Shown piece by piece: positions 13,110 through 63,328 of a stretch of DNA of 64,000 bases (position 1 is the stretch's first letter; every line of letters starts with the position of its first letter). Origin of the DNA: Limnomonas spitsbergensis (lineage: Eukaryota > Chlorophyta > Chlorophyceae > Chlamydomonadales); the NCBI GenBank assembly GCA_037349105.1, contig JAYJMM010000116.1, positions 1,488,001 to 1,552,000 of the forward strand, in the 5' to 3' direction. The position numbers were made by a program, and so were the translations under genes. The notes below the pieces were generated by a model. It ran no database searches. It saw only the letters and a program-made list of their open reading frames with translations, and was not told where the DNA came from.

Positions 13110-16100
13110 GTGCGCTCCGCCTGCGTCGCTTTCTCAGCAGCATGCAGCTATGACCAACATGCTGCATGTCGTATGGTCAGGTCTTGAAGGATGAAATCAC
13201 AGCCATGCGACCATGCCTGCCATGCTGCATGTTGCATGGACAGGTCTTGAAGGATGACAACACAGCCATGCAACCATGTCTAACATGCTGCATGTCGCAT
13301 GGGCAGGTCTCGATTGATGACAACACAGCCATGCAACCATGTCTAACATGCTGCATGTCGCATGGGCAGGTCTTGCAGGACGACAACACAGCCATGCAAC
13401 CATGTCTAACATGCTGCATGCCGCATGGGCAGGTCTTGAAAGATGACAACACAGCCATGCAGCCATGTCTAACATGCTGCATGTCGCATGGGCTGGTCTT
13501 GAAGGATGACAACACAGCCATGCAACCATGTCTAACATGCTGCATGTTGCATGGGCAGGTCTTGAAGGACGACAATACAGCCATGCAACCATGCCTGACA
13601 TGCTGCATGTTGCATGGGCTGGTCTTGAAGGATGACAACACAGTCATGCAACCATGTCTAACATGCTGCATGTTGCATGGGCAGGTCTTGAAGGATGACA
13701 ACACAGCCATGCAACCATGTCCAACATGCTGCATGTTGCATGGGCACGTCTTGAAGGACGACAACACAGCCATGCAAACATGACCAACATGCTGCATGTT
13801 GCATGGGCAGGTCTTGAAGGACGACAACACAGCCATGCAACCATGCCTGCCATGCTGCATGTTGCATGGGCTGGTCTTGAAGGATGACAACACAGCCATG
13901 CAACCATGCCTAACTTGCTGCATGTTGCATGGACAGGTCTTGAAGGACAACATCACAGCCATGCAACCATGTCTATCATGCTGCATGTCGCATGGGCAGG
14001 TCTTGCAGGACGACAACACAGCCATGCAACCATGCTTTGCATGCTGCATGTTGCATGGGCAGGTCTTGCAGGACGACAACACAGCCATGCAACCATGTCT
14101 AACATGCTGCATGTTGCATGGACAGGTCTTGAAGGATGACAACACAGCCATGCAATTATGCCTAACATGCTGCATGTTGCATGGACAGGGTTTGCAGGAT
14201 GGCCTCACGGCCATGCAGCTGGCTGTAACCGTCGAGACCGTGGAGGTCAACTGCGCTGCCCTTACCTGCTTCCCTCCGCTCCTTACGAGCCTTGTCAACC
14301 TCAAGACGCTGGACCTGTCAAGGTCAGTGGCAGCGGTCCATGATTTCCACAAATAGTAACTGCTCGTTCATTTACGCGCACACACACGCAAATGCACAAG
14401 CAGTGTCATGTAACCTGTTCCACTAGGGCATACGTGACAGCCAGCGTGGCCCTGACTGTCATATGTGGTGGCATCGCGATCGTCACTCAACTGCATTTGA
14501 ATTTCTGTCCAGCCAGAGAGGCCTTGACGGGCCTGCTTGGGCCTGCCTGGGCCTTGACGGGCCTACCTGGGCCTGCCCGAGTGCTGGTGCTGAAATTTGA
14601 ATTGTTTCCGTTCATTGGAAACAGCATTTGAGTGTGTGTTTCCGTTGCCAGGAAAGCGTGCGTCATGCTTTCTTTTTGCCCATAACGATGGTCTGAGTGC
14701 TTGATGCCCTCTTGGTGGATGCCTTGTCCTTGATTGCCTGGCTTCAGTGTCTCCTTGACCACATAGCTGCACTGATTCCTTGACCACATAGCTGAACTGA
14801 TTCCTTGACCTCATAGCTGAACTGATTCCTTGACCTCATAGCTGAACTGATTCCTTGACCACATAGCTGAACTGATTCCTTGACCTCATAGCTGAACTGA
14901 TTCCTTGACCACATGGCTGAACTGATTCCTTGACCACATAGCTGAACTGATTCCTTGACCTCATAGCTGAACTGATTCCTTGACCTCATAGCTGAACTGA
15001 TTCCTTGACCTCATAGCTGAACTGATTCCTTGACCTCATAGCTGAACTGATTCCTTGACCTCATAGCTGAACTGATTCCTTGACCTCATAGCTGAACTGA
15101 TTCCTTGACCACATAGCTGAACTGATTCCTTGACCACATAGCTGAACTGATTCCTTGACCACATAGCTGAACTGATTCCTTGACCTCATAGCTGAACTGA
15201 TTCCTTGACCACATAGCTGAACTGATTCCTTGACCTCATAGCTGAACTGATTCCTTGACCTCATAGCTGAACTGATTCCTTGACCACATAGCTGAACTGA
15301 TTCCTTGACCACATAGCTGAACTGATTCCTTGACCTCATAGCTGAACTGATTCCTTGACCACATAGCTGAACTGATTCCTTGACCACATAGCTGAACTGA
15401 TTCCTTGACCACATAGCTGAACTGATTCCTTGACCTCATAGCTGAACTGATTCCTTGACCACATAGCTGAACTGATTCCTTGACCTCACAGCTGAACTGA
15501 TTCCTTGACCTCATAGCTGAACTGATTCCTTGACCACATAGCTGAACTGATTCCTTGACCACATAGCTGAACTGATTCCTTGACCACATAGCTGAACTGA
15601 TTCCTTGACCACATAGCTGAACTGATTCCTTGACCACATAGCTGAACTGATTCCTTGACCACATAGCTGAACTGATTCCTTGACCTCATAGCTGAACTGA
15701 TTCCTTGACCACATAGCTGAACTGATTCCTTGACCTCATAGCTGAACTGATTCCTTGACCACATAGCTGAACTGATTCCTTGACCACATAGCTGAACTGA
15801 TTCCTTGACCACATAGCTGAACTGATTCCTTGACCTCATAGCTGAACTGATTCCTTGACCACATAGCTGAACTGATTCCTTGACCACATAGCTGAACTGA
15901 TTCCTTGACCTCATAGCTGAACTGATTCCTTGACCTCATAGCTGAACTGATTCCTTGACCTCATAGCTGAACTGATTCCTTGACCACATAGCTGAACTGA
16001 TTCCTTGACCACATAGCTGAACTGATTCCTTGACCTCATAGCTGAACTGATTCCTTGACCTCATAGCTGAACTGATTCCTTGACCTCATAGCTGAACTGA

Positions 16101-19100
16101 TTCCTTGACCACATAGCTGAACTGATTCCTTGACCACATAGCTGAACTGATTCCTTGACCACATAGCTGAACTGATTCCTTGACCACATAGCTGAACTGA
16201 TTCCTTGACCACATAGCTGAACTGATTCCTTGACCACATAGCTGAACTGATTCCTTGACCTCATAGCTGAACTGATTCCTTGACCACATAGCTGAACTGA
16301 TTCCTTGACCACATAGCTGAACTGATTCCTTGACCACATAGCTGAACTGATTCCTTGACCACATAGCTGAACTGATTCCTTGACCACATAGCTGAACTGA
16401 TTCCTTGACCTCATAGCTGAACTGATTCCTTGACCACATAGCTGAACTGATTCCTTGACCACATAGCTGAACTGATTCCTTGACCACATAGCTGAACTGA
16501 TTCCTTGACCACATAGCTGAACTGATTCCTTGACCACATAGCTGAACTGATTCCTTGACCACATAGCTGAACTGATTCCTTGACCTCATAGCTGAACTGA
16601 TTCCTTGACCTCATAGCTGCACTGATTCCTTGACCTCATAGCTGAACTGATTCCTTGACCTCATAGCTGAACTGATTCCTTGACCTCATAGCTGAACTGA
16701 TTCCTTGACCTCATAGCTGAACTGATTCCTTGACCTCATAGCTGAACTGATTCCTTGACCTCATAGCTGAACTGATTCCTTGACCACATAGCTGAACTGA
16801 TTCCTTGACCACATAGCTGAACTGATTCCTTGACCACATAGCTGAACTGATTCCTTGACCTCATAGCTGAACTGATTCCTTGACCACATGGCTGAACTGA
16901 TTCCTTGACCACATAGCTGAACTGATTCCTTGACCACATAGCTGAACTGATTCCTTGACCACATAGCTGAACTGATTCCTTGACCTCATAGCTGAACTGA
17001 TTCCTTGACCTCATAGCTGAACTGATTCCTTGACCACATAGCTGAACTGATTCCTTGACCACATAGCTGAACTGATTCCTTGACCACATAGCTGAACTGA
17101 TTCATTGACCACATAGCTGAACTGATTCCTTGACCTCATAGCTGAACTGATTCCTTGACCTCATAGCTGAACTGATTCCTTGACCTCATAGCTGAACTGA
17201 TTCCTTGACCACATAGCTGAACTGATTCCTTGACCACATAGCTGAACTGATTCCTTGACCTCATAGCTGAACTGATTCCTTGACCTCATAGCTGAACTGA
17301 TTCCTTGACCTCATAGCTGAACTGATTCCTTGACCACATAGCTGAACTGATTCCTTGACCACATAGCTGAACTGATTCCTTGACCACATAGCTGAACTGA
17401 TTCCTTGACCACATAGCTGAACTGATTCCTTGACCACATAGCTGAACTGATTCCTTGACCACATAGCTGAACTGATTCCTTGACCTCATAGCTGAACTGA
17501 TTCCTTGACCACATAGCTGAACTGATTCCTTGACCACATAGCTGAACTGATTCCTTGACCACATAGCTGAACTGATTCCTTGACCACATAGCTGAACTGA
17601 TTCCTTGACCACATAGCTGAACTGATTCCTTGACCACATAGCTGAACTGATTCCTTGACCACATAGCTGAACTGATTCCTTGACCACATAGCTGAACTGA
17701 TTCCTTGACCACATAGCTGAACTGATTCCTTGACCACATAGCTGAACTGATTCCTTGACCACATAGCTGAACTGATTCCTTGACCACATAGCTGAACTGA
17801 TTCCTTGACCTCATAGCTGAACTGATTCCTTGACATCATAGCTGCACTGATTCCTTGACCTCATAGCTGAACTGATTCCTTGACCTCATAGCTGAACTGA
17901 TTCCTTGACCTCATAGCTGAACTGATTCCTTGACCTCATAGCTGAACTGATTCCTTGACCTCATAGCTGAACTGATTCCTTGACCACATAGCTGAACTGA
18001 TTCCTTGACCACATAGCTGAACTGATTCCTTGACCACATAGCTGAACTGATTCCTTGACCACATAGCTGAACTGATTCCTTGACCTCATAGCTGAACTGA
18101 TTCCTTGACCACATGGCTGAACTGATTCCTTGACCACATAGCTGAACTGATTCCTTGACCACATAGCTGAACTGATTCCTTGACCACATAGCTGAACTGA
18201 TTCCTTGACCTCATAGCTGAACTGATTCCTTGACCTCATAGCTGAACTGATTCCTTGACCACATAGCTGAACTGATTCCTTGACCACATAGCTGAACTGA
18301 TTCCTTGACCACATAGCTGAACTGATTCCTTGACCACATAGCTGAACTGATTCCTTGACCACATAGCTGAACTGATTCCTTGACCACATAGCTGAACTGA
18401 TTCCTTGACCTCATAGCTGAACTGATTCCTTGACCACATAGCTGAACTGATTCCTTGACCACATAGCTGAACTGATTCCTTGACCACATAGCTGAACTGA
18501 TTCCTTGACCTCATAGCTGAACTGATTCCTTGACCACATAGCTGAACTGATTCCTTGACCACATAGCTGAACTGATTCCTTGACCTCATAGCTGAACTGA
18601 TTCCTTGACCACATAGCTGAACTGATTCCTTGACCACATAGCTGAACTGATTCCTTGACCTCATAGCTGAACTGATTCCTTGACCTCATAGCTGAACTGA
18701 TTCCTTGACCTCATAGCTGAACTGATTCCTTGACCACATAGCTGAACTGATTCCTTGACCACATAGCTGAACTGATTCCTTGACCACATAGCTGAACTGA
18801 TTCCTTGACCACATAGCTGAACTGATTCCTTGACCTCATAGCTGAACTGATTCCTTGACCACATGGCTGAACTGATTCCTTGACCACATAGCTGAACTGA
18901 TTCCTTGACCACATAGCTGAACTGATTCCTTGACCACATAGCTGAACTGATTCCTTGACCTCATAGCTGAACTGATTCCTTGACCTCATAGCTGAACTGA
19001 TTCCTTGACCACATAGCTGAACTGATTCCTTGACCACATAGCTGAACTGATTCCTTGACCACATAGCTGAACTGATTCCTTGACCACATAGCTGAACTGA

Positions 19101-22100
19101 TTCCTTGACCACATAGCTGAACTGATTCCTTGACCACATAGCTGAACTGATTCCTTGACCTCATAGCTGAACTGATTCCTTGACCACATAGCTGAACTGA
19201 TTCCTTGACCACATAGCTGAACTGATTCCTTGACCACATAGCTGAACTGATTCCTTGACCTCATAGCTGAACTGATTCCTTGACCACATAGCTGAACTGA
19301 TTCCTTGACCACATAGCTGAACTGATTCCTTGACCTCATAGCTGAACTGATTCCTTGACCACATAGCTGAACTGATTCCTTGACCACATAGCTGAACTGA
19401 TTCCTTGACCACATAGCTGAACTGATTCCTTGACCACATAGCTGAACTGATTCCTTGACCACATAGCTGAACTGATTCCTTGACCACATAGCTGAACTGA
19501 TTCCTTGACCACATAGCTGAACTGATTCCTTGACCACATAGCTGAACTGATTCCTTGACCACATAGCTGAACTGATTCCTTGACATCATAGCTGAACTGA
19601 TTCCTTGACCACATAGCTGAACTGATTCCTTGACCACATAGCTGAACTGATTCCTTGACCACATAGCTGAACTGATTCCTTGACCACATAGCTGAACTGA
19701 TTCCTTGACCACATAGCTGAACTGATTCCTTGACCACATAGCTGAACTGATTCCTTGACCACATAGCTGAACTGATTCCTTGACCACATAGCTGAACTGA
19801 TTCCTTGACCACATAGCTGAACTGATTCCTTGACCACATAGCTGAACTGATTCCTTGACCACATAGCTGAACTGATTCCTTGACCACATAGCTGAACTGA
19901 TTCCTTGACCACATAGCTGAACTGATTCCTTGACCTCATAGCTGAACTGATTCTTTGACCTAATAGCTTAATCATCGCCTTGATCTCATAACAGCGTAAC
20001 TTTATCCCTGGCCATGTCTCAGGTGCTCCTTAACAACGCTCGCTTTCAGCATGTCGAGCCTCATCAAGCTCCAGGTGCGTTGACCGCCACTGAAAACATT
20101 CAGGCTGATTCAGCCACAATCCAGCTACAACTGAACACCACTGATAAATATAGGTTGATTCAGCCACAATTCAGGTACATCACGGCCCAAGCGATTGGCC
20201 CTGTGGTGGCCACCCGGCGGCCCCTGAAAGGCCTGACCCCTCCCCTTTTTGCTGGACCCGCCGCTGCCCTCCCCCCCTGTGTTCGACACGTCACGGATCT
20301 CAACATCCCCCCTTTTTATCTGACCCGCGGCTGCTCCCCATTTTCATTTGACTCGCCACCGCCGCCGCTGCCCCCCCCCTTTAAGTTGACTCGCCGCCGC
20401 CGCCGCTGCCCTCCCCCCCCCCTCCAGGTGCTATATTCCTGCAGGTCCTGACTGTCGCCTACAACCAGCTGACCTACCTATGCCGCTGCCCTCCCCCCCC
20501 TCCACGTGCTATATTCCTGCAGATCTTGACTGTCGCCCACAACCAGCTGACCTGCCTATGCCGCTGCCCTCCCCCCCCTCCACGTGCTATACTCCTGCAG
20601 ATCTTGACTGTCGCCCACAACCAGCTGACCTGCCTATGCCGCTGCCCTCCCCCCCCACACTTGCTATACTCCTGCAGATCTTGACTGTCGCCCACAACCA
20701 GCTGACCTGCCTATGCCGCTGCCCTCCCCCCCCACACTTGCTATACTCCTGCAGGTCTTGACTGTCGCCCACAACCAGCTGACCTGCCTATGCCGCTGCC
20801 CTCCCCCACCTCCACGTGCTATATTCCTGCAGGTCCTGACTGTCGCCCACAACCAGCTGACCTACCTATGCCGCTGCCCTCCCCCCCCTCCACGTGCCAT
20901 ATTCCTGCAGGTCCTGACTGTCGCCCACAACCAGCTGACCTACCTCCGCTGCTGCCCTCCCCCCCCTCCACGTGCTATATTCCTGCAGGTCCTGACTGTC
21001 GCCCACAACCAGCTGACCTGCCTATGCCGCTGCCCTCCCCCCCCTCCACGTGCTATATTCCTGCAGGTCCTGACTGTCGCCCACAACCAGCTGACCTGCC
21101 TATGCCGCTGCCCTCCCCCCCCTCCACGTGCTATATTCCTGCAGGTCCTGACTGTCGCCCACAACCAGCTGACCTACCTCCGCTGCTGCCCTCCCCCCAC
21201 ACACTTGCTATACTCCTGCAGATCTTGACTGTCGCCCACAACCAGCTGACCTGCCTATGCCGCTGCCCTCCCCCCCCACACTTGCTATACTCCTGCAGGT
21301 CCTGACTGTCGCCCACAACCAGCTGACCTGCCTCCCGGAAGAGCTCGGGGATCTGACGTGCTTGCGCCGCCTGGACGTCGCCTGCAACCAGTTGAGCTGC
21401 CTCCCATCAAAGCTGTGCGACTTAAGTCAGCTGGAGGTGCTCAATGCCCAGGGGAACCGGCTCACTGGCCTGCCGGAGGACTTTGGGCGCATGGTGCGCT
21501 GGGAGCCCTTGTTGTGCGTTGGGAGCCCTTGTTGTGCGAGGCTGATGTTGTGGGCTAATGTTGTGGGCTGATGTTGTGGGCTAATGCTGTGGGCTGATGT
21601 TGTGGGCTGATGTTGTGGGCTGATGCTGTGGGCTGATGCTGTGGGCTGATGTTGTGGGCTGATGTTGTGGGCTGATGTTGTGGGCTGATGTTGTGGGCTG
21701 ATGCTGTGGGCTGATGTTGTGGGCTGATGTTGTGGGCTGATGCTGTGGGCTGATGTTGTGGGCTGATGTTGTGGGCTGCTGCTGTGGGATGTTGTGGGCT
21801 GATGTTGTGGGCTGATGTTGTGGGCTGATGTTGTGGGCTGATGTTGTGGGCTGATGCTGTGGGCTGATGTTATGGGCTGATGTTGTGGGCTGATGCTGTG
21901 GGCTGATGCTGTGGGCTGATGTTGTGGGCTGATGCTGTGGGCTGATGTTGTGGGCTGATGCTGTGGGCTGATGTTGTGGGCTGATGTTGTGGGCTGATGT
22001 TGTGGGCTGATGCTGTGGGCTGATGTTGTGGGCTGATGTTGTGGGCTGATGCTGTGGGCTGATGTTGTGGGCTGATGTTGTGGGCTGATGTTGTGGGCTG

Positions 22101-25100
22101 ATGTTGTGGGCTGATGCTGTGGGCTGATGTTGTGGGCTGATGTTGTGGGCTGATGTTGTGGGCTGATGCTGTGGGCCAGGGAACTGGGAGCCGATCGGGT
22201 TCCGAGCCCAGAACTGCCGAGGCGAAAAAAACCGGGCTCTGTAAAACCATGGTCTCGGCGCAAGCCGAGGCCAGACGACCCTTTTTAGACACGTGGCTCG
22301 GCAAAGCCGGGTAGATTTTAATGGCAGCTCGGCAACTCGGCTTGTCAGCTTTAGCAACAATGTCGATAAAGCTCGTGCACTCTGAAAGAATGTGGAAAGT
22401 TTCAATATGGGCTATGCATGCGTGTTTTAATTTCATTTCAAGCGCCGCTGTATGCCAGCTCAGCTCGGGTTTTTCCCTCGTCGCTGGACCGATGTCATAT
22501 CCGCATGGCATCCGTCCCGACATAGCAACTCGGTTATATGCGAGTGGGCTGATGCTGTGAGCTGATGTTGTGGGCTGATGCTGTGGGCTGATGTTGTGGG
22601 CTGATGTTGTGGGCTGATGTTGTGGGCTGATGTTGTGGGCTGATGTTGTGGGCTGATGCTGTGGGCTGATGTTGCGGGCTGATGTTGTGGGCTGATGTTG
22701 TGGGCTGATGTTTTGGGCTGATGCTGTGGGCTGATGTTGCGGGCTGATGTTGTGGGCTGATGTTGTGGGCTGATGTTGTGGGCTGATGCTGTGGGCTGAT
22801 GCTGAGGGCTGATGTTGTGGGCTGATGTTGTGGGCTGATGTTGTGGGCTGATGTTGTGGGCTGATGTTGTGGGCTGATGTTGTGGGCTGATGTTGTGGGC
22901 TGATGTTGTGGGCTGATGTTGTGGGCTGATGCTGTGGGCTAATGCTGTGGGCTGATGCTGTGGGCTGATGCTGTGGGCTGATGTTGTGGGCTGAAGGCAT
23001 GATAACAGGATGACCACATTATGTCAAGAAATGACAGGACCCCCTGTGTGTTGTGCGTTATTGGACTTATTTCCAGTGCTGTGCGATTGCGCCGTAATTC
23101 AGAAATCGTTGAAATTGTTACGGTCCCTTGCGGGTAGCTGAAAGTGCCTTGAAATTATGGTGACTGAAACTCAGGGGCACGATCAGCTGCCGTGAAGATC
23201 GTAATCGGCACAGCACTGGTTATCCCCCTGGAAAGCTGTGATCCGTGATCTAATCTTTTAGAATTCTTTTCTTATCGGCACAGCACTGGTTATTCCCCAG
23301 GACAACTGTGAATCGTGATATATTATTGATTTATTTTTCAATTCCTTTTTTCTGCTGGCGCTTCTTTTTTAATTATCATTTACCGAGGGGGTGGCAAAAA
23401 CAAAAAATCGACCCCATCCCCCTTTTTTGCAAAAAGCGTTCCATAGCTGTTTTAAAAATAATTTTTGGCTTAGGGGGGTGGGAGATATGGGGGGGCAAAG
23501 TTGGGGGTGGGTGGGTGGGTGGGTGGTCCCCCAAAAATCCATTTTTTTTCAAACTCCGAATCTTTTTTTCTGGAGGTCTGTTGAGGCTGGCAGCGGCACC
23601 TATGTGTTCTCCTTGCCAACATGAGTCCATTTACATCCTAAAATGTTGCTTGAATTACCACATGACCCCCTGCCCCCCCACACTGAGGGTTTGGCTTCAT
23701 TGGACAACCCCCGAAACCAGCTGAGTCATTCTTAGTTGACTGTTGGCATGTCATCACCTAACGAATTGAAATATACCAGTACAAACGCTTTGACGAGCTG
23801 ATCAAAAAAGACCCCTGACATGCCCTGTAATTTTGAATTTTTGACTGATATTTGAATTTTAATGGGTTCCGGAGGCGGGGTGGGGTGGTGGGGGGGTAGG
23901 CTCGTTGGGTGCTCGTTTTGGGGGGGGGGGATGGGATCCCTGGCTTTTTTTCTTGCCCCCCCCTCGATTTTTTTTCCTTTTTGAATTCTCCAATTATTTT
24001 CTAATTCTTTTTTCCTGCTGGTGCCTTGTCAGACAAGCCTCAAGCTGCTGGGGCTGAAGAGCAACCGGCTGGAGGCGCTGCCGGCCTCCTTCAGCCGGCT
24101 TGTATCCTTAAAGGAGCTCTTCTTGACGGACAACTGTCTCAAAGAGCTGCCGCAAGGTGCGGGTGGTACAAGCCGGCAGGTCATTGGCGGGACAATGGGC
24201 GGTCGAAAAATAGACCGGGGGAAGCTCGACCCTGAAAAATAGACCGGGTCCTCCGGGAAACCGGAGAGAGGAAAAATCGAACCCTTTGAGGTCCTTAACC
24301 CATGTATGATCCTGCGCAAGGTGCGAGATGGGTGCCTAGGGTTCAGGGTTTTACGTGTGCGCCTCCGAATCGGGATAAGCAGGAGGTTGTGATTCCTGAG
24401 TATTGGAATGTGGGGATCGGTTAGAGGTGGTTGGATGTAAATGTTTATGTTTGCGCACTTGAACTGCGCTTGAGCTACGTCAAGGCCTACGGCGGAGGGG
24501 GGCTGATGCCGCAAGGTGCCTGCTGCTCCGGGCCATCGCTTGTAGTCCGGTCCAGGTTTGCTCCCCATCGGCCCAGTGGTGGCAATCCGGAAGCACCCCA
24601 AAGCTGGTATGTTGTTATCTTCAGATTTTGGACTTCCTTTTCTAGGAGCTGGGGGAGTGGGGAAGTGTGAATGTGTGGGGGAAGTGTGGGAATCGGGGCC
24701 AGTGGATCGCTCCCGGCAGGCGAATACTTTTTTTCGAAACGAAAAGATCCTTCATTGAATGAAAAAAGATGCTCCCTGAAAATAAAGATGCTCCAGGGTG
24801 GGAGTGTAGATGCTCCAGGGTGGGAGTGTAGATGCTCCAGGGTGGGAGTGTAGATGCTCCAGGGTGGGAGTGTAGATGCTCCAGGGTGGGAGTGTAGATG
24901 CTCCAGGGTGGGAGTGTAGATGCTCCAGGGTGGGAGTGTAGATGCTCCAGGGTGGGAGTGTAGATGCTCCAGGGTGGGAGTGTAAATGCTCCAGGGTGGG
25001 AGTGTAGATGCTCCAGGGTGGGAGTGTAAATGCTCCAGGGTGGGAGCGTAGATGCTCCAGGGTGGGAGTGTAGATGCTTCAGGGTGGGAGCGTAGATGCT

Positions 25101-46679: not shown

Positions 46680-46832
46680 AGGTACTCCCAAGAGGGAGGG
46701 CGGGGCTTCTCTCTGGTTTCTTTCTCTATCCGCAAGCTCAGCGGCGCCGTCAGCGGCATCATGGAAGGCCTCATCCACGTCCACCATGGAGTGGGGGCAA
46801 GGAATCAGGCCCAGCTGCTTGAGAGTCATGAC
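46680..46832 (-). CDS. Probable last exon of membrane protein gene
   Basis: 51 codons: VMTLKQLGLIPCPHSMVDVD, EAFHDAADGAAELADRE, up to LLGVP at a good donor (CCT|GTGAGT). Acceptor GCTTGCAG. Phase 0 matches the preceding exon if that one ends at 47126. Reading through the donor reaches a stop at 46539. Whether it belongs to this gene is inferred. Confidence 0.5.
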
Positions 46833-49800: not shown

Positions 49801-52800
49801 AAGTCAGAAATAGTGTTAGTAATTACGGTCCCTTACCAATTACCAGGAAAACTAGCTGAATCTGCCTTGAAGCTATGGTGACTGAAACTCAGCTACGTAA
49901 TTCAGCCACGGTAAGGTCCGTGATTGGACCTTACCTGAGATTTGAAGGGTGCATCGCATTATATAAATACAGTGCATGCCTGACCCCTAACTCTAACCCA
50001 TTGACCCTAACACACATACCTGCATGCCTAAACCTCAACCCCTGAACACATACCTGCATGCCTAAACCTCAACCCCTAAACACATACCTGCATGCCAACC
50101 AGCAAGCTCAAGATGTTCATGTAAGTGCCGCCGCAGGTGAAGGGGCTTTGCTGCATTGGGCAAGGGCATGCAGACACACGGGGTTCACATGCCAGTCACA
50201 AAACACAGGTTCGTAGAGTAGATGTGCTTCGAATACTTTCGACTGCAGATTCAGGCACACTTGCACGGGCAACATGCCCCACCGACCCATACCAACATAT
50301 AGGAACAGGGCTCCATGTGACCGAAGGGTGATGCATCAGGATGTACGCCAACGTAATATCATAGACGTTTTGACAATTTAAAACTTGCAGCCGCAAAACT
50401 ATCCTCCTTTCTTTTGATGCAGCATGCCCTTCCTACCCACCCGCTCGCCCCAGCGCCTAGGAACCCGCCTCACCATGTCCGACGGGTTGTAAACCTCCTC
50501 CTTCATATATAGCCTGCGGAAGAAAACAACCAGATGTTTACGAGAAAAAGTGTATGCGCCAGCAGAGCTCAGGTGCACTGCCTGCGCATCTGCACTTACA
50601 TCAGCACTAGTTAGTTCAGCGCACAGCCCACATTCTAAACCAACAATTTCCCTATTTTTTTACCTTAATATTTTTGGCCAGTAAGCTATGCGGGAAAATA
50701 ATGGCATTGATACCTGGCCCCTGCAACGACCCACCACAGCCATTCCTGACCATCTGGGCATGGAGCCATCAGCCCTCCATCTTCCCTGTTGGTGTCGGGA
50801 CCCTTGGAGTGCTCCCCTAACAGTATAATTACAGCATCAGGGCCCTCCCCCCCCATGCTGGCCGTCAAACTCCCGCGTCCTAAACCATACAGGCCCCAGT
50901 ATGCCTCGCATGCCAAACGATGGCGGCTATTAGCTCGAGCTGAACCCTGATACCCTGCTGGTTGCTAGTCCCCTGCGTTTTGAACCAAAAAAGCTCCAGT
51001 ACTTCACTCATCGTATACTCGAGGCCATCAGGGCTCAGGACCCTGACCCCCTGCAGGCCGGACATGCCCTCAAGGCTGAACCCTTTAACCCCAGCCTGTC
51101 TCATTCACCCTTCACCCATGGCCATCGGGGCATTAAACCCTGACGCCTTCGCTGGCAGATAACACCCTCGCATTTCTACATTTCAGCCCAGTGTGTGTTC
51201 ACTCGCCCTTAACTGATGGCCATCAGGGTCCTGAACTCTTAACCCCCCCGCTGGCCCACCCCCCTGCTGGCCAAAAGGACCTTACAAAGGAAACCCTGAA
51301 GCCCTATTGTGCCTCACTCACCGTACACTCATGGCCATCAGGGCCCTGTACTCCTGGTCTTGGCAGCTGACAAACATCTGCTGCACCAGCAGCTCCAAGG
51401 CAAACACCTCGCCATATGTCTCTTGCACAATGTTCATTTGACGCTGCTCGGATACACATGACCAACAGTGAGCAGGGGTGGGACGAGATATACTTGGGGG
51501 CATGAAAAAAATTGCAAAAATCCACGGCAGGGTCTGGAGTGAGGTAACCATGACAGAGCATAATCCCAGCAGCAATGAGGTGCCATGGAAAGAGGAAGGT
51601 GTGGGATGCTCTGCAACCCGAGGCACAATAAGCATCAGCGATGAGGATCCATGAAAGATGGCATGGGGAGCTCTGCCACTTGCGTCATCATCAGGCGTCG
51701 GAAAAAAAACCCTAGGTTGCTTCAATTACCTCGTACAAGAACAGGAATGTCTGGCCTGAAGGCAAAACAGGAGAAACATACACTTGTTAGGACACACATT
51801 ACGGGCAGGACGACAACACTTCACAAATTCAAAATCTGGGCATGGAAATGCATCTTAGGGTTCAACTACACTTACAGCTTCCGCAACTTACTGCGCGCGT
51901 CACCATGCTGAAAATTGAAGGGATCAGAGCTCCAAACTCACCGGTAAACACGCTGTACACTATTGATAGAAGACCAAAGAAACTGCGGACACAAGTAGGG
52001 GACAGAGTCAGGGACTGCATTGCATAATGAAAGCAATGTCCTAACCTTTGCTCACATCCCCTTCCCCTAGGCTACAAAGTTTGACCTTGGATGAGGGACC
52101 TCCGTGCAGCCAGCTCAGCTACTCTGACCCCTGGCCGTGGGCTACTAGGGCTTCCTTCCAATTGGCTCAGTGCTGACCACTCAGCAGCCACACAAGTGGT
52201 CTGGCGCGTATAATTAAGCACTGACACTGGTACCCAGAATATGCCCTTGAGTTCGCATCCGCAATATCCTCATGGAACATGCGGTATCCAAAGCACCAGC
52301 ATTTGAGGCTTTGACTGACGAGACTGAGGAATCCAGTGCCAATTGTAGCGTGATTCAGCTTGATTTCGGCCTTTGGACAGGGAGGCCGGGGGCAGCAAGC
52401 GCTCCTGCTGATGCCACAAGGCTGATCAAGGTTTGATCCTGAATGGCTCAGTGGCGGCGACCGGACGCACTAAATAAAAACTGGGAATAACCAGGGTGAA
52501 ACATCACCGCCTTACACAGCTGCACCTCTTGACCAAGCACACCTTGTCTCAAAATTTGAATCCTGCAATGAAAGCAGGTAAAATATTTAAGTGGGAATTT
52601 TGCCATGGAGACAGGGGGGAGAACTTGAGAATTTGCCTCAAAAAATGCTTCATGCTGGCTTGGGATAAGTCAACGTCCATCAGGTGCTCAACCCTCATCC
52701 CCCATACACAGGACAGTTGGATCAAAGGTGTACAAGTATGGATTTTTAAATCTAAACGGCACCAGCCAAGAAGGTGGCAATTCACAGATACAGGCAACAT

Positions 52801-53775
52801 ATCCACTCAGGGATGGTAGCAGTCTATTTGATGATCCTCAACATTTAAATTGCGTCAACCTTGTCAGCTTATAAGAGGTCTTTCAGGGAAAGGTTTCATC
52901 AGGGGTTTCATGCATGATCTTGAACCATTAGACTGTACACATCCTAACCCCAATTATGTTATACATATCTACTCACCGATGGCTTCCCAACCTCAATTTG
53001 TTTTAAACAACTAACCCCACTATTGTTTAGCACACCCTAACCCCAATTTTGTTCTACACATTCACCCACCGATGGCTTGAGACCTGTGAAAACTGCCGTC
53101 ATCTTGAGCAGCATGGGATGAGCCGCAAAGCCAATGATCATGGACATGGCGGACAGGCCAAGGTACTGGACCAGGGTCTTGAAGCTGCCCTTCTCTCGCA
53201 CCTCCTTCAGCTTTTCTGTTTGGTCCTCCGGGCACCTGACGCATGCCAAGCGACACAACTGTATCGTCATCCAGCCTCAGGTGGGGGGGGGCCATGTGCA
53301 TTGACCACACTTCTTCAAGAGCCTAATTTGTAAATTTCTATACATCGATATTACCCAGCCACTTGCGGTTCCGATTGATATTGACCTCTCCAGTTCCATG
53401 CACTCTGTGCAACGCGATGGTGCCATACTGCCATGCTTCTGCTCTTTCCGGCAGCATGAGCCGGGCCTCAGCATGTCCCATCATGGGAGGGGAAGGGCTG
53501 GGGGCATCCAAGTAGAATGGCCGCTCTACGAGGCGGTATGCTGCGTCGAGATCTACTCACCCGATTCCTGCCTCTATGTCTGGCCGTCTAGCCTCGCTGA
53601 ACAGGGTGAACATATCATCCTTCACCGTCGACTTCCGCTCGGAGGTGCTGGCCGCTCTGCATCTCAGCAGCGAACGAACTAGCCTCGTGTGCTGCAAACT
53701 ATATCTTCGGGAAAAGCCGCACTCTCTCCTAAATCCCGACGCCTGCGCACCGCGCATTCGCAACTGACTCTGCAT
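46680..53775 (-). CDS. Multi-exon membrane protein, unknown family
   Basis: Minus-strand exons: 53775-53355 (in-frame TGA at about 53554), about 53215-53070, 51982-51942, 51755-51730, 51443-51322, 50513-50474, 50150-50088, 47668-47501, 47248-47126 (or to a stop at 47087) and probably 46832-46680. From 51982 to 47126 all phases join exactly. The N-terminus is rich in Arg and Ser without acids (MQSQLRMRGAQASGFRRE), like a mitochondrial or plastid transit peptide. Later come hydrophobic segments YLGLSAMSMIIGFA, FFGLLSIVYSVF, MNILSLLVGMQ, EVIFVACFLVF and FFGALFGLLSL, so four or more membrane spans. One junction between 53070 and 51982 does not phase, so a small exon is missing. No family is recognised. 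Confidence 0.6.
47087..47248 (-). CDS. Membrane protein exon near the 3' end
   Basis: Acceptor TCTCCAG. Reads DLDCPVSGLYAFRGSLDDRV, then AFLTSLLFELEKKPEQHIPS. It either stops at 47087-47089 after 53 codons or is spliced at 47126 (TCA|GTGGGT) in phase 0 to the exon at 46832. Confidence 0.65.
   Translation of the reverse strand, partial: DLDCPVSGLYAFRGSLDDRVAFLTSLLFELEKKPEQHIPSSVGNSLDLVEAPA
47501..47668 (-). CDS. Membrane protein exon with two hydrophobic segments
   Basis: Acceptor GATGTCAG, donor CAAG|GTGAAA, 56 codons in phase 0: VFMHGMEVIFVACFLVFDAS and RSLFFGALFGLLSLNTLVLK are candidate membrane helices. Confidence 0.7.
47669..50087. other. Intron with 72-bp array and MITE-like copy
   Basis: 47720-47855 holds an inverted copy of the MITE-like core; 49785-49925 holds another. 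Between them are the 72-bp array (listed separately) and about 930 bases without recognised content. Confidence 0.6.
47878..48848. repeat. 72-bp minisatellite, about 13 copies
   Basis: Unit gtaagggaggcagggttgaa, tcaggggcgggccgaggagg, cggtaggggactggaattaa, gacctagcagac. The first two copies carry 'ggtgactgaaattaaggag', which links the unit to the flanking MITE-like core ('gtgactgaaa'). Confidence 0.95.
50010..50092 (-). repeat. Donor-junction repeats beside a 63-bp exon
   Basis: Three tandem copies, about 31-33 bp apart, of 'acacatacctgcatgcc' plus 'taaacctcaacccct'. On the minus strand each reads (g)gcatgcag|gtatgtgt, that is, the exon end and donor at 50088 followed by two more copies inside the intron. 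Confidence 0.85.
50088..50150 (-). CDS. Membrane protein exon (21 codons)
   Basis: QSPFTCGGTYMNILSLLVGM then Q, phase 0 at both ends, acceptor AATGCAG, donor CAG|GTATGT. Confidence 0.7.
50474..50513 (-). CDS. Membrane protein exon (40 bp)
   Basis: Completes an Arg codon and reads LYMKEEVYNPSDM. Acceptor TCCGCAG, donor ATG|GTGAGG. Confidence 0.65.
51000..51321 (-). repeat. Diverged copies of an exon's donor end
   Basis: The end of the 51443-51322 exon (ccatgagtgtacg|gtgagt; plus strand 'ctcaccgtacactcatggccatcagggccctg') recurs, diverged, at about 51006-51045, 51105-51145 and 51190-51235, each time as 'cact(c/t)(a/g)cc... ggccatc(a/g)ggg'. Spacing is about 90-120 bp. Confidence 0.7.
51322..51443 (-). 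CDS. Membrane protein exon (122 bp)
   Basis: Acceptor GAGCAG. Reads RQMNIVQETYGEVFALELLV, QQMFVSCQDQEYRALMAMSV, leaving CG of an Arg codon at a GTGAGT donor. Confidence 0.72.
51730..51755 (-). CDS. Membrane protein micro-exon (26 bp)
   Basis: Completes a Gly codon and reads QTFLFLYE. Acceptor CCTTCAG, donor GAG|GTAATT. Both phases fit the neighbouring exons. Confidence 0.6.
51942..51982 (-). CDS. Membrane protein exon (41 bp)
   Basis: Reads FFGLLSIVYSVFT plus one base of Gly, a hydrophobic segment. Acceptor TCCGCAG, donor ACCG|GTGAGT. Confidence 0.6.
51983..53069. other. Intron region, small exon probably missed
   Basis: Phases on either side do not match, so at least one short exon should lie here. 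A candidate is near 52975-52990, where 'aagccatcg|gtgagt' on the minus strand echoes the donor at 53070 (aagccatcg|gtgggt). Nothing else was recognised. Confidence 0.4.
53070..53215 (-). CDS. Membrane protein exon with first clear hydrophobic segment
   Basis: Clearly coding frame KLKEVREKGSFKTLVQYLGL, SAMSMIIGFAAHPMLLKMTA, VFTGLKPS. The 5' limit at ACAAACAG (53215) matches the phase of exon 1; another acceptor at about 53243 (GCGTCAG) would not. Donor TCG|GTGGGT. Confidence 0.6.
53355..53775 (-). CDS. Membrane protein exon 1, with in-frame TGA
   Basis: ATG 53775 starts an Arg-rich, transit-peptide-like N-terminus followed by KDDMFTLFSEARRPDIEAGI. A TGA at about 53554 interrupts the frame, after which the same frame continues as VDLDAAYRLVERPFYLDAPS and MMGHAEARLMLPERAEAWQY up to NRNRKWL at donor CTGG|GTAATA. 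GT...AG bases around the TGA are only 20 apart and removing them breaks the frame. A sequence error, nonsense mutation or recoded TGA are the choices. Confidence 0.6.
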
Positions 53776-57224: not shown

Positions 57225-57330
57225 ACGTTACACTTCTGGCCCCGCTCAAAGCTCGGCCGCGTGGGCGCCCAACTGTTCAGAAGGGAGAACAGAATAAACT
57301 AAAAGGAAGAGGGGGGGAAGGAACACACTG
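57225..57330 (-). mobile_element. SINE-like interspersed repeat, 3' fragment, inverted
   Basis: Reverse complement of the family 3' end: 'gttacacttctggccccgct' then 'gcggccgcgtgggcgcccaa'-like sequence and a purine-rich tract (gaataaactaaaaggaagag), facing copy 2 across about 155 bp. Confidence 0.5.
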
Positions 57331-58665: not shown

Positions 58666-61600
58666 GTGGGGCTTAAGAGCATGGAGGAAGTCTTGCATGC
58701 ATGGAAGGCGCACACAGATGGAAGTTGGAAGGCTTGCGGGGCGGCTGTACGCCCTTCTTTTCCCGATAGGCCAGGGTGTGCTCAGCCGGATTTTTTGTGC
58801 AGTGTCCTTGTATCCACCCAGAAGTTTCTTCCGAAAGGGCCAGGTACTGCCAGCAGAAAAGCCTGAGATAAAACGGACGCAAGCTAGAAAAGGGGTGTCA
58901 ACCAATTTGTCAACCTTGAGTTTCGGTACCCTGGGCCTATGCACACTTGCTCGGGTAGGGTAAGGCAACTGATGCCACCACACAGAAAGGTCAACAAGAG
59001 CTGAATAGTGTTTGCTGGGGCGTCGCCTCCGCCTTGACCCGTCTGCCCATCCCGGCTGCGATACATCCTAACACTGAACCAGCTTTGCTTGGTCGAAAAT
59101 AACGACATTTGTTCCGCGAACCGTCTGCAGCTGCACTGAGCCTGAACCGACTTTTTGCTGCATCCCCACCATCCCTCGCAGCCGCCCCGGGCATAGACTA
59201 CTCCCACCTGGGCGCTATGGCTATCACCACCACTGCTGCCGTGAAGGCCCTGTTGCAGCAACAGCTGCAACAACACGGCAAGTCCAGCGCAACGGACGGT
59301 GCGTCGGCCACTGCGATGGGTGTGCTCGGGCAGCTGTCCGACGCCCTGGGCGCTTTGCAGGCCGGAGCTCTGGGGAGCCATGTGCTGGTACTGCTCACGC
59401 TAATAATCTCGGTCATCATGGCATCCGTCGTGGCTTCAGCACACAGCAAGGAGTACCTGAGCTACTCCGAGCGCTCGCAGTCGAGCGACGCAGGGAAGCT
59501 GGGGTACGATTACTCGGTTCAGGACTCAGCAGAGTACTGGCAGCGGCGGCCGCTGGCCGTGGCGCGGCGCGCCGCGGCAGTGCTCGCCGAGGCCGCCAGC
59601 TTTGGCGCCGCGCTTCTGATGGATGTGTGGACGGGGCGTCTCAAGGTCAACGAGGCCAAACGGGCGGCGCAGCTGCGGGGTGTCATTGAGCGCCTTGGCC
59701 CGGCTTTCGTCAAAGTGGCGCAGGCGGTCAGCACGCGCTCGGACCTGCTGTCCCCGCTGTACTTCGAGCAGATCCAAAGGCTGCAGGTTTGCTTTAGATC
59801 CAAATCCAGATCCAGAGGCTGCAGATGTGCTGGAAATGCAGGTCCAGAGTCAGAGGCTGCAAGTACCATCTGGATCTTGTGTGTTGATTGATGTGGTAAA
59901 GCACCTCCGCGCTTAAGGCTGCCTAACTTCCATTCACGCGTGCAACATGGTTGGACCCCCTCCCTGTACCCCCCTTACTGTCTCTGAATGCGTGCAGCAC
60001 GGCCAGACCCCCTTCCCCTGCCCTGCTCAACCTCAATGCGTGCAAAATGGCCGAACCCCTCCCTCCACCCTGCTTATGTTTTACTGCTTGAAGCACCGCT
60101 GCAGGCCCCCCTCCCCATGCCCTGCCGAACTTCCCTTTTTGCGTGCAACAGGGCCAGACCCCGTTCCACTACCCTTCGTAACCTCCCGTGCCGCATGCAT
60201 CCCGGCCGGACCCCCTCCCCCTGCCCTGCTGCACCTCAATGCAAGCGAAATGGCCAACCCCCCCCCTCAACCGAAACCGATATTGCCGCCCCCCTTCCTC
60301 AACCAAAATGGCTGAGCCCGTCCCTCATCCTGCTTAACTCTATGCGTGCATCACGGCTGCAGGACCGCGTTCCGCCCTTCCCTTGTGTGCTGGCCAAGTC
60401 TGCTATGAAGCAGGCTTTCAAGCGGCCGGTCAGCGAAGTGTTTGCCTCTGTGTCCGACAAGCCGGTGGCTGCGGCCAGCCTGGGGCAGGTATACCGTGCG
60501 ACACTGAAGCCTGAGCTGGGGGGCTTTGAGGTCGCGGTCAAGGTGCTGCGGCCAGGCGTGCTGGAGCAGGTGCGGGAGGGGCTGCTGGGAGGCCGAAGGA
60601 GGTGTAGGGGAAGGGGGAGGTGCAAGGGAGGGGGGGAGCAGAGGGAGGTGAAGGGGAGGGGGAGGTGCTAGAGGGGGGGGGCAGAGGAGAATCAAATCAA
60701 GGTGATGAGGTCAGGTGTGCAGGAACTGAAGCGTGTGGGCGTTGCATCCTGGTCATGGGGAGTCAGGGTATTATCATAGGGGGCATTTTAGCAGGGGAGT
60801 CTTTTCAGGGGTGAAGCCTTTTCCTGCCTAATCTTGGAAAAGGCTTTGGCCCAAGAACCCCCCCTTACTGCCTAATCTTGGAAAAGGCTTTGGCCCAAGA
60901 ACCCCACCTTACTGCCTAATCTTGGAAAAGGCTTTGGCCCAATAACCCCCCCTTACTGCTTAATCTTGGAAAAGGCTTTGGCCCAAGAACCCCACCTTAC
61001 TGCCTAATCTTGGAAAAGGCTTTGGCCCAAGAACCCCCCCTTACTGCTTAATCTTGGAAAAGGCTTTGGCCCAAGAACCCCCCCTTACTGCCTAATCTTG
61101 GAAAAGGCTTTGGCCCAAGAACCCACCTTACTGCTTAATCTTGGAAAAGGCTTTGGCCCAATAACCCCCCCTTACTGCTTAATCTTGGAAAAGGCTTTGG
61201 CCCAAGAACCCCACCTTACTGCTTAATCTTGGAAAAGGCTTTGGCCCAAGAACCCCCCCTTACTGCCTTATCTTGGAAAAGGCTTTGGCCCAAGAACCCC
61301 ACCTTACTGCTTAATCTTGGAAAAGGCTTTGGCCCAAGAACCCCACCTTACTGCCTAATCTTGGAAAAGGCTTTGGCCCAAGAACCCCCCCTTACTGCCT
61401 AATCTTGGAAAAGGCTTTGGCCCAAGAACCCCACCTTACTGCCTAATCTTGGAAAAGGCTTTGGCCCAAGAACCCCCCCTTACTGCTTAATCTTGGGGGG
61501 CCCTGCAGATTTTCTTGTCGGGGCCGATCATGCAGGAAAGCCCAATAACCCCCCCTTCGGGGGTGCCCCAAGCAGAGGGGGGGACCCTAAGAACAAGGGG

Positions 61601-63328
61601 ACGGGGTGGTGGGTATAGGAAGCCTGGTCGTCAGGGGGGGCGGGGAGACAGGGTTCTGGCAGTTGAACCATCCGCCGTGCCCCGGAGTTGAGTGCGCCTG
61701 AGCCCATAGCCCCCAACTGGTAGAGGGGGGTGACTGTGTGGATGCACTGCATGGATCACTGTGCAGGAACTGATGCGTGCGGGCGTTGTATCCTGGTTGG
61801 TCATGGGGAGTCAGGGTCTCGATGGGGTGGAGGGTAAGAGGAAGCCGAGCCTGGTCAGGGGGGTGGGGAAACAGGGTTGGGGGAGTTGAATAATCTGCCG
61901 TGCGCCCGTGCCCCGCAGTTGAGTGCGCCTGAGCCCGTTGCCCCCAACCGGTAGACGGGTGGTGACTGATTGGATGCACTGTATGGATCACTGTTGGGGT
62001 GTACCGTACTGCATGCTTGTTCCTGGAATCCGCAATGGTTCGATCTTTCGGCCTTTCTCGATCAGCTGTATTCCTGCTGAGGGCCGAAAGCAGGTCTCAC
62101 TAATGACCCGTCAGCTGCCCCCTGAGGTCCTGGGCATTGCCTGTTGCCTAATTGATGTGTCCTCTTCATCAAATCATGCCTACCCGCCCGCCTGCCTGCC
62201 TACGCCTGCCAGCCTGCATGCTCGCCCGCCGCCTGCCTGCCTACCTGCCTGCCTACCTGCCTGCCAGCCTGCCTACCTACCTGCCTGCCTGCTTGCCTGT
62301 CTACCTGCCTGTCTGTTGATAGTGGCCAGATTGCCTGTCTACCTACCTGCCGCCTGCCTGACTGCTTGCCTGCCGGCATCCCTGCCTGCCTGCCTGTCTG
62401 CCCACCTGTCTGTTGATAGTGGCCTGATTGCCTGCCCGCCTGCCTGCCTACCTGCCCACCTGTCTGTTGATAGTGGTCTGCCTGCCTGCCTGCCCGCCTG
62501 CCTACCTGCCCACCTGTCTGTTGATGGTTGCCTGATTGCCGGCCTGCCTGCCCTGCCTGTCTGTTGATAGTGGCCTGATTGCCTGCCTGCCTGCCTGCCC
62601 TCCCACCTGTCTGTTGATAGTGGTCTGCCTGCCTGCCTGCCCGCCTGCCTACCTGCCCACCTGTCTGTTGATGGTTGCCTGATTGCCGGCCTGCCTGCCC
62701 TGCCTGTCTGTTGATAGTGGCCTGATTGCCTGCCTGCCTGCCTGCCCTCCCACCTGCCCGCCTACCTGCCTGCCTGCCTGTCCGTTGATAGTGGCCTGAT
62801 TGCCTGCCTGATTGCCTGCCTGCCTGCCTGCCTGCCTGCCCGCCTGCCTGCCTGCCTGTCTGTTGATAGTGGCCTGATTGCCTGCCTGTCTGCCTGCCTG
62901 CCTGCCTGCCCTCCCACCTGCCTACCTGCCTGCCTGCCTGCCTGTCCGTTGATAGTGGCCTGATTGCCTGCCTGATTGCCTGCCTGCCTGCCTGCCTGCC
63001 TGCCTGCCCGCCCACCTGCCTACCTGCCTGCCTGCCCGCCTGTCTGTTGACATTGCCTGCCTGCCTGCCTGCCTGCCTGTCCGTTGATAGTGGCCTGATT
63101 GCCTGCCTGTCTGCCTGCCTGCCTGCCTGCCTGCCTGCCCGCCCACCTGCCTACCTGCCTGCCTGCCCGCCTGTCTGTTGACATTGCCTGCCTGCCTGCC
63201 TGCTAATGGTGGATCAGGTATCCCTAGACCTGTACGTGATGAGGGAGGCGGCGCTCATCTTCAACAGCACAGGGACGATGGCTTGCGACTGGGCAGCAGT
63301 GGTGGACGAGTGGGCGGCGCGATTCATG
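58239..63328 (+). CDS. ABC1/UbiB-family atypical kinase, 5' part (4 exons)
   Basis: Exons 58239-58665, 59182-59786, 60363-60569 and 63218-63328, all GT-AG and in phase; 450 residues so far, and the gene continues beyond the window. Exon 2 carries YWQRRPLAVARRAAAVLAEA, GPAFVKVAQAVSTRSDLLSP (the ABC1 KxGQ helix as KVAQ); exon 3 VAAASLGQVYRATL (the Ala-rich loop that replaces the glycine loop) and FEVAVKVLRPGV (ATP Lys); exon 4 VSLDLYVMREAALIF and VVDEWAARFM. ABC1K proteins act in mitochondria or plastids, where they affect quinone and prenyl-lipid metabolism. A hydrophobic stretch VLVLLTLIISVIMASVV lies before the ABC1 core. The N-terminal exon has no recognised domain. The C-lobe is missing. 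Confidence 0.88.
59182..59786 (+). CDS. ABC1 kinase exon 2
   Basis: Good pyrimidine tract and CTCGCAG acceptor. Reads from APGIDYSHLGAMAITTTAAV through a hydrophobic helix to YFEQIQRLQ at CTGCAG|GTTTGC. Contains the KVAQ motif. Confidence 0.85.
59770..59885 (+). repeat. Repeats of the exon 2 donor
   Basis: 'gatccaaaggctgcag|gt' (the real end at 59786) is followed by 'gatccagaggctgcagatgt' (about 59808) and 'agtcagaggctgcaagta' (about 59848): diverged tandem copies of the exon end inside the intron. Confidence 0.75.
59940..60362 (+). repeat. Repeats related to the exon 3 acceptor
   Basis: About six to seven diverged copies, 50-90 bp apart, of 'tgcgtgcancacggcc-agacccc' followed by C-rich tract and 'ctgct(c/t)aa'. 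The last copy, 'tgcgtgcatcacggctgcag|gacc', is the true acceptor of exon 3. Confidence 0.75.
60363..60569 (+). CDS. ABC1 kinase exon 3
   Basis: 69 codons in phase 0, DRVPPFPCVLAKSAMKQAFK to VAVKVLRPGVLEQ. Donor GAGCAG|GTGCGG. Followed by a G-rich purine tract. Confidence 0.88.
60822..61494. repeat. 44-bp minisatellite, about 15 copies
   Basis: Unit ttactgcctaatcttggaaa plus aggctttggcccaagaaccc and a C run of variable length (3-6), in ABC1 intron 3. Confidence 0.95.
61495..62160. repeat. About 240-bp diverged tandem duplication
   Basis: 'catggatcactgtgcaggaact' with 'gggcgttgtatcctggt', 'catggggagtcaggg', 'agttgaa' and 'gttgagtgcgcctgagccc' recurs across 61495-61760 and 61740-61995; the first part also occurs at about 60715-60780. 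No exon is seen. Confidence 0.75.
62165..63207. repeat. CCTG-rich compound minisatellite
   Basis: (cctg)n interrupted by 'tctgttgatagtggcctgat' and 'tctgttgatggttgcctgat' spacers, which recur about 14 times. The last stretch runs up to about ten bases before the exon 4 acceptor (63217). The long frames on both strands come from the repeat. Confidence 0.95.
63218..63328 (+). CDS. ABC1 kinase exon 4
   Basis: Acceptor GGATCAG, 37 codons: VSLDLYVMREAALIFNSTGT and VVDEWAARFM, donor ATG|GTGGGG. Matches the ABC1 segment that precedes the conserved ELxY motif, expected in the next exon. Confidence 0.85.

What the first reader, a model, noticed from the sequence alone, without database searches (positions are those of the whole stretch)
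13110..63217. Intron repeats built from splice junctions in three genes
Tandem units span exon-intron boundaries at many places: kinase exons 2, 4, 6, 9, 10 (acceptors) and 7 (donor), with echoes for 5, 7 and the last exon; ABC1 exon 2 donor and exon 3 acceptor; membrane-protein donors at 51322 and 50088. Copy number ranges from 2 to about 17. This suggests a general process in this genome: local duplication begins at a splice junction and expands into the intron, leaving decoy splice sites. I know of no named phenomenon that fits.
Basis: seen in the sequence. Interest (0 to 1): 0.9.

Follow-up and report, generated by a model that had tools for sequence, protein, structure and literature searches.

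The report
Splice-junction copies inside algal introns
In this green alga about one sampled splice junction in five has been copied by short local duplications into the neighbouring intron, and ordinary repeat growth throughout introns, rather than a process that starts at the junction, mostly accounts for it.

Summary
The core observation is real. In four gene models (54 junctions) 11 junctions have a copy, crossing exon and intron, in the adjoining intron, each above the best of 100 shuffles. Five listed cases fail in my numbering; one donor (53070) was missed. It recurs elsewhere in this 260-Mb genome of a Chlamydomonas eustigma relative: 24 of 134 junctions of 67 inferred introns.

A start at the junction is not supported. 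Copy frequency climbs from exon through junction into intron without a peak (19% at junctions, 28% inside introns). Exon overlap varies, unit length ignores reading frame, three tested arrays are locus-specific. Best explanation: short tandem duplications arise along introns; one that crosses a junction is tolerated because the exon-proximal copy still splices.

Against this: ABC1 introns alone show 8 of 24 junctions against 19% inside (p = 0.13), and counted as events junction crossings exceed uniform placement 1.65-fold (26 of 97 families, 15.8 expected, p = 0.002; young ones 12 of 54 against 8.6, p = 0.11). Survivorship may explain that; a real bias is not excluded. Precedents are in print.

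The parts
12951..38201 (+). Leucine-rich-repeat protein kinase gene, 13 exons, 12 introns
   Evidence: Spliced model open; Pfam LRR and Pkinase; best match P0009 of C. eustigma, 55% identity, colinear
13141..14217 (+). 63-bp array, 17 copies; the last copy is the real acceptor of exon 2 (exon starts 14189)
   Evidence: 12 of 16 decoys keep AG; a 251-bp piece matches only this array in the genome
20402..21333 (+). 77-78-bp array, 12 copies; the last copy is the real acceptor of exon 4 (exon starts 21299); 35 nt of exon in each unit
   Evidence: 11 of 11 decoys keep AG and use of any of them gives a stop; a 310-bp piece matches only this array in the genome
27843..28156 (+). Unit of about 143 bp, 2.2 copies, across the exon 6 acceptor (exon starts 28145), 12 nt of exon
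31146..31376 (+). 69-bp unit, 3-4 copies, across the exon 7 donor (exon ends 31174); 61-bp last step
   Evidence: a 192-bp piece matches only itself in the genome
31368..32630 (+). 37-bp array, about 34 copies, whose first unit overlaps the last, weak exon 7 donor copy; 32 CAGGTGT donor-like sites
   Evidence: that it was seeded by the junction copy is inference
33261..33348 (+). Exon 9 acceptor (exon starts 33332) and one copy 64 bp upstream
34290..34497 (+). 101-bp array that abuts but does not cross the exon 10 acceptor (exon starts 34499)
   Evidence: spanning score 3
35983..36832 (+). Exon 11 acceptor (exon starts 36801) and one diverged copy 800 bp upstream
46160..53775 (-). Bestrophin-like membrane protein gene, 13 exons
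   Evidence: Pfam PF14023, just over its cut-off; colinear with relatives
52938..53078 (-). Exon 2 donor (exon ends 53070) and one copy 93 bp into the intron; not in the finding
51004..51353 (-). Exon 6 donor (exon ends 51322) and three diverged copies 97-115 bp apart, 32 nt of exon
50004..50096 (-). 34-bp array, 3 copies, across the exon 8 donor (exon ends 50088), 9 nt of exon
59217..63328 (+). ABC1 kinase gene, first three exons (the gene goes on beyond the window)
   Evidence: a further exon matched at G000:C116:1552076
59769..59861 (+). 38-bp unit, 2.4 copies, across the ABC1 exon 1 donor (exon ends 59786), 18 nt of exon
60530..60740 (+). ABC1 exon 2 donor (exon ends 60569) and a weak diverged copy 159 bp into the intron
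   Evidence: Score 31, best of 100 shuffles 25

Best explanation
Short stretches of DNA (about 30-150 bp) are tandemly duplicated all along the introns of this alga and some grow into arrays. A duplicated stretch that happens to cross a splice junction is harmless if it carries a whole splice signal: the exon-proximal copy (last for an acceptor, first for a donor) keeps joining the exons, and the spare copy, exon piece included, simply lengthens the intron. The spare copy is then free to decay or to be amplified by unequal exchange or slippage, which leaves rows of decoy splice sites. Junctions are not where the process starts; they are places it may pass through. Shown: the copies, the profile without a peak, indifference to reading frame, locus specificity of three arrays. 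Inferred: neutrality, which copy is spliced, and the mechanism of duplication and amplification.
For: No peak at junctions: over 94 introns the share of points with a copy is 3% at 60 nt inside the exon, 16% at 20 nt, 19% at the junction, 24% at 50 nt and 31% at 100 nt into the intron. The exon part differs from case to case, 9 to 70 nt. Offsets of the best copies have remainders 0, 1, 2 modulo 3 in 13, 12 and 10 cases, so no sign of a coding role. No duplicate family of 97 lies wholly in the exon flanks searched (up to 100 nt). Best copies keep GT or AG in 24 of 35, against 20.5 expected from their identity: neither preserved nor removed. In the window introns are 60% tandem repeat, exons 2.6%, intergenic DNA 6.5%. 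Related proteins lack an insert where decoys would add one, and all 11 exon 4 decoys would give a stop. Pieces of three arrays match nothing else in 260 Mb at the sensitivity of that search.
Against: By events, junction-spanning families exceed uniform placement: 26 of 97 against 15.8, p = 0.002; off-window 17 of 57 against 10.0, p = 0.009; window 9 of 40 against 5.75, p = 0.07; window TRF arrays 6 of 27 against 3.55, p = 0.11. Survivorship (the exon copy is held by selection, so old pairs stay recognisable) fits the strata (under 90% identity 14 of 43 against 7.2; 90% or more 12 of 54 against 8.6), but the off-window young set alone is 8 of 29 against 4.2 (p = 0.035), and spanning and other families do not differ significantly in identity (median 0.888 against 0.914, p = 0.14). 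ABC1 introns alone: 8 of 24 junctions, 0.33 against 0.19 inside, p = 0.13; off-window introns together: 0.18 against 0.23, p = 0.15. The expected number depends on ancestral intron length: for the window's 9 of 40, from 10.9 (150 nt, p = 0.83) through 7.9 (229 nt), 5.6 (343 nt) and 4.0 (500 nt, p = 0.013) to 2.6 (800 nt, p = 0.0006). 13 of 97 families have a member in an exon flank without crossing the junction by 8 nt, which this model allows only if exon pieces can be copied on their own.
Confidence: 0.72

Rival explanations
1. One reading: duplication is mutationally biased to splice junctions, for example because transcription, R-loops or splicing itself expose or mark them, and then grows into the intron.
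For: Event-level excess 26 of 97 against 15.8 expected (p = 0.002), and 8 of 29 against 4.2 among young off-window families (p = 0.035); ABC1 introns, 8 of 24 junctions. In print: tandem repeats are denser near intron ends in two green algae (PMC3887541, abstract and passages).
Against: No peak at junctions in the point profile, junctions below interiors over all introns; young families over all introns 12 of 54 against 8.6, p = 0.11; 95% identity or more 5 of 27 against 4.2, p = 0.41; exon overlap not fixed.
Confidence: 0.17
2. The arrays are alternative coding sequence: in-frame units (63, 78, 69 bp) are included in some transcripts and vary the protein.
For: The 63-bp units are in frame, and from 6 of 16 decoys of the exon 2 array the reading frame stays open into the exon.
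Against: Frame remainders 13/12/10 over 35 junctions; 11 of 11 exon 4 decoys give a stop; six related proteins have no insert there.
Confidence: 0.05
3. Introner-like mobile elements carrying splice sites were inserted at junctions.
For: Introners are known to spread into many genes (PMC9860276, search listing with start of abstract only).
Against: Pieces of three arrays match only themselves in the genome (simple and very common words are skipped by that search); the copied exon piece is that gene's own exon at each place shown.
Confidence: 0.03
4. Intron birth by tandem duplication of an AGGT exon segment (Rogers model).
For: Same mutational event; well supported in other organisms (PMC3443670, passages).
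Against: In that model donor and acceptor of the intron are copies of each other; in none of the 11 window cases is the partner junction the best copy.
Confidence: 0.03

Closest known systems
[quoted passage not shown] 2007 as cited in PMC5941971; one passage seen)
   Same: A tandem array that spans a splice junction; said there to affect alternative splicing
   Different: One human locus; here about one junction in five of a genome sample
Tandem duplication of an intron-exon segment in potato RdRp (PMC4974935; passages)
   Same: The duplicated unit carries a putative branch site, polypyrimidine tract, 3' splice site and exon start
   Different: There the copy was spliced as a new intron with inserted exon; here the spare copy stays inside the old intron (inferred)
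Tandem repeats crowding intron ends in Chlamydomonas reinhardtii and Volvox carteri (PMC3887541; abstract and passages)
   Same: Green algae with their highest repeat density in introns, more near intron-exon junctions
   Different: Units of 1-50 bp; whether units include exon sequence is not stated in the passages seen
Tandem array of dual-specific splice sites in polyubiquitin UBC (PMC10809524; abstract)
   Same: Repeat units bounded by splice-site motifs, a choice among many near-identical sites
   Different: Units are coding and variably included; here they are intronic and show no frame preference
[quoted passage not shown] passages)
   Same: Short tandem duplication duplicates splice-site sequence without changing the protein
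   Different: Creates an intron from exon; here existing introns lengthen (inferred)

Membership tests
Junction-spanning minisatellite (VNTR) | Head-to-tail units of tens of bases | tested here: met
   34-143 bp, 2-17 copies in the window; the exon 11 and ABC1 exon 2 cases are single diverged copies at a distance, not arrays
Junction-spanning minisatellite (VNTR) | Unit crosses a splice junction | tested here: met
   35 of 188 junctions have a copy that crosses them
Junction-spanning minisatellite (VNTR) | Copy number varies between individuals | not testable with these tools
   One genome only
Junction-spanning minisatellite (VNTR) | Affects splicing | not testable with these tools
   No transcripts of this alga at hand
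Intron gain by tandem duplication (Rogers) | Donor and acceptor are copies of one AGGT segment | tested here: not met
   the partner junction is not the best copy in any of the 11 cases with score 30 or more
Intron gain by tandem duplication (Rogers) | Intron absent from relatives | not tested
   No gene structures of relatives fetched
Introner-like elements | Similar element at many loci | tested here: not met
   Pieces of three arrays match only themselves; the others were not searched
Coding repeat / dual-specific splice array (UBC type) | Unit length a multiple of 3 and open frame | tested here: not met
   Remainders 13/12/10; exon 4 decoys 11 of 11 with stop; exon 2 decoys 10 of 16 with stop, 6 open

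The most novel reading that the evidence does not exclude
Short tandem duplication in this alga is truly biased to splice junctions (about 1.5-fold, tied to transcription or splicing), so that introns grow largely by copying their own ends, and the genome keeps a large stock of near-identical decoy splice sites that the spliceosome must pass over.
Probability: 0.17. Interest if true: 0.75.

Novelty: new member of a known kind. Interest (0 to 1): 0.4.

Why it matters
About a fifth of the sampled junctions carry a nearby copy of themselves, and kinase exon 4 has 12 near-identical acceptors in a row of which only the last gives an open frame. That is a ready natural test of how a spliceosome picks among equal sites (first site, branch-point distance, or nearness to the next donor), and a simple neutral route by which introns lengthen. 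It also warns gene annotators: aligners can place such junctions in the wrong copy (inference).

Tried and rejected
Rejected: coding repeats (frame remainders, stops); introners (locus specificity of three arrays); a junction start point (no peak, variable exon overlap). The strong form of the survivorship argument was weakened by my own larger sample: with 66 introns the young families showed no excess (7 of 41 against 6.1), with 94 introns 12 of 54 against 8.6.

Limits. Off-window junctions are inferred from adjacent family matches, splice-site weight matrices from the window's introns and reading-frame continuity, not from transcripts. Copies were sought only in the adjoining intron plus 60 nt of exon on each side (100 nt for the family counts), so the finding that best copies lie on the intron side (34 of 35) is partly built into the search. 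Dropped: 15 match pairs for which no joint was found (5 ABC1; 8 chaperonin; 2 kinesin). Matches used: 46 of 56 ABC1 rows, 70 of 72 chaperonin rows; of 139 kinesin rows 93 were typed and 65 lay in the 20 stretches fetched of 39 planned. Low-complexity duplicate pairs were left out of the family counts. An earlier family count of the window with another unit-length rule gave 9 of 40 against 5.0, p = 0.03, and of the first 39 off-window introns 11 of 35 against 4.7, p = 0.003. One intron of the 94 had no interior points (93 in the paired test).

Literature. The listing for Chlamydomonas eustigma with introns and repeats (8 papers) and that for 'duplicated splice site', 'intron expansion' and related terms (1 paper) showed nothing on this pattern by title and start of abstract; I opened none of them. 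The searches gave the precedents cited.
Full report
WHAT THE WINDOW IS. The window is bases 1488001-1552000 of contig C116 of a 260-Mb, 124-contig assembly. The closest named relative of three of its proteins is Chlamydomonas eustigma (70, 55 and 73% identity), so it is most likely a chlamydomonadalean green alga. It holds ORFs with RNase H and reverse transcriptase domains on the left, an LRR protein kinase gene (13 exons, +), an inositol 4-phosphatase-like gene (2 exons, -; so named after a hit), a bestrophin-like gene (13 exons, -) and the start of an ABC1 gene (+). All four spliced models are open with GT-AG introns. The kinase and bestrophin models align with relatives without gaps at the junctions in question, save one: the bestrophin exon 8/9 joint was two residues short, and the exon 9 acceptor was moved by 6 nt to mend the model.

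THE OBSERVATION. I scored each of 54 junctions for an ungapped copy crossing it (8 nt or more on each side) inside its own intron. 11 of 54 score 30 or more, each above the best of 100 dinucleotide shuffles of that intron; alignments are. The exon 2 acceptor of the kinase is the last of 17 units of 63 bp, the exon 4 acceptor the last of 12 units of 77-78 bp. One was missed (bestrophin donor at 53070).

IS IT SPECIAL TO JUNCTIONS? In the window copies are found at 2102 of 3323 intron points, 11 of 54 junctions and 31 of 1056 exon-interior points. I then took further introns from the same genome: 12 from ABC1 genes, 27 from chaperonin genes and 28 from kinesin genes. Junction copies: ABC1 8 of 24, chaperonin 7 of 54, kinesin 9 of 56. 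Mean share of junctions against interior points per intron: window 0.20 against 0.41 (p = 0.02), ABC1 0.33 against 0.19 (p = 0.13), chaperonin 0.13 against 0.21 (p = 0.10), kinesin 0.16 against 0.27 (p = 0.047), off-window together 0.18 against 0.23 (p = 0.15), all 0.19 against 0.28 (p = 0.012; 93 introns). So over all introns junctions are copied less than interiors; outside the window the difference is not significant, and ABC1 leans the other way. The order over all introns holds at thresholds 26, 30, 36 and 44. The profile over all introns is 3, 8, 16, 19, 21, 22, 27, 31% at -60, -40, -20, 0, +20, +40, +60 and +100 nt: a slope, not a peak. In the first 39 off-window introns it was nearly flat from -30 to +50.

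EVENTS RATHER THAN BASES. Large arrays inflate point counts, so I also counted each duplicate family once and asked how many should cross a junction if a unit of its length fell anywhere in the collapsed intron. TRF arrays of the window: 6 of 27, 3.55 expected, p = 0.11. All duplicate families: window 9 of 40 against 5.75; off-window 17 of 57 against 10.0; all 26 of 97 against 15.8, p = 0.002. So there is a 1.65-fold excess. Among pairs at least 90% identical it is 12 of 54 against 8.6 (p = 0.11), at least 95% 5 of 27 against 4.2 (p = 0.41), below 90% 14 of 43 against 7.2 (p = 0.005). This is what survivorship would give: at a junction one member of the pair is coding and splice-site sequence held by selection, so the pair should stay recognisable longer (up to about twice, by my reasoning) than a pair inside an intron. 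Two results go the other way: the off-window young set alone is 8 of 29 against 4.2 (p = 0.035), and the identities of spanning and other families do not differ significantly (p = 0.14). A further 13 of 97 families have a member in an exon flank without crossing the junction by 8 nt. I therefore leave a junction bias open at about one in six. The window's expectation depends on ancestral intron length: 7.9 against 9 found at 229 nt (a median in Table 2 of PMC8226300, passage, which I take to be that of C. reinhardtii), but 10.9 at 150 nt and 2.6 at 800 nt.

HOW IT WORKS. Best copies go to the intron side in 34 of 35 cases, though only 60 nt of exon were searched on each side; offsets modulo 3 are 13/12/10, so there is no sign of coding selection; GT or AG is kept in 24 of 35 copies against 20.5 expected, so decoys are neither purged nor kept. 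No family lies wholly in the exon flanks searched. Tandem window units carry 9-35 nt of exon and at least about 20 nt of intron, enough for a whole splice signal; that selection demands this is inference. In the exon 4 array the exon part of the real copy differs from decoys by as little as 0 of 35 nt, and the units show higher-order order (lag 7 most alike), so exchange has probably run across the junction; in the exon 2 array the real exon differs from every decoy by at least 7 of 29 nt. Use of any exon 4 decoy gives a stop, as does that of 10 of the 16 exon 2 decoys. Which site is really spliced cannot be seen here. Pieces of the arrays of exons 2, 4 and 7 match nothing else in the genome (that search skips simple repeats and very common words), which speaks against a dispersed element for these three.

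WHAT IS KNOWN. Two green algae have their highest repeat density in introns and more repeats near intron-exon junctions (PMC3887541, abstract and passages). [quoted passage not shown] A tandem duplication carrying a whole 3' splice site and exon start is known in potato (PMC4974935, passages), and tandem duplication as a source of introns is established (PMC3443670, passages). The kind is known; the prevalence in this genome is what my searches did not find in print. The window's kinase is an extreme gene: its introns are 70% tandem repeat, while five arbitrary 10-kb stretches of the genome have 1.4 to 18%.

VERDICT. Real and recurrent in this genome, mostly explained by intron-wide tandem duplication tolerated at junctions, with a modest event-level excess that survivorship may or may not cover, and a useful natural experiment in splice-site choice.

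Noticed in passing
3487-12866 (-): Two long ORFs with RNase H and reverse transcriptase domains, perhaps a non-LTR retrotransposon (type not checked), ending just upstream of the kinase gene.
   Followed up: no
31368-32630 and 36144-36615: Intronic arrays that contain plant-type telomere motifs; TTTAGGG/CCCTAAA occurs 50 times in 34.2 kb of introns of the window against 2 in 10.7 kb of intergenic DNA and 7 in the left 12.95 kb.
   Followed up: partly
22178-22548: The 13-bp array of kinase intron 4 is interrupted by about 370 bp of unrelated DNA, perhaps an insertion.
   Followed up: no
12951-63328: Introns are 60% tandem repeat by TRF but intergenic stretches of the same window only 6.5%.
   Followed up: partly
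21494-21538: A 20-bp duplication starts exactly at the GT of the kinase exon 4 donor, so donor-like GTGCG recurs at +20 and +40.
   Followed up: no
window exon flanks and L009-L062: 13 of 97 duplicate families have a member in an exon flank without crossing the junction by 8 nt, so pieces of exon alone may also be copied into introns.
   Followed up: no
G000:C124:7568786-7572002 and 7584138-7586493: Two neighbouring kinesin genes with matching exon patterns, probably a tandem gene duplication; sequence not fetched.
   Followed up: no
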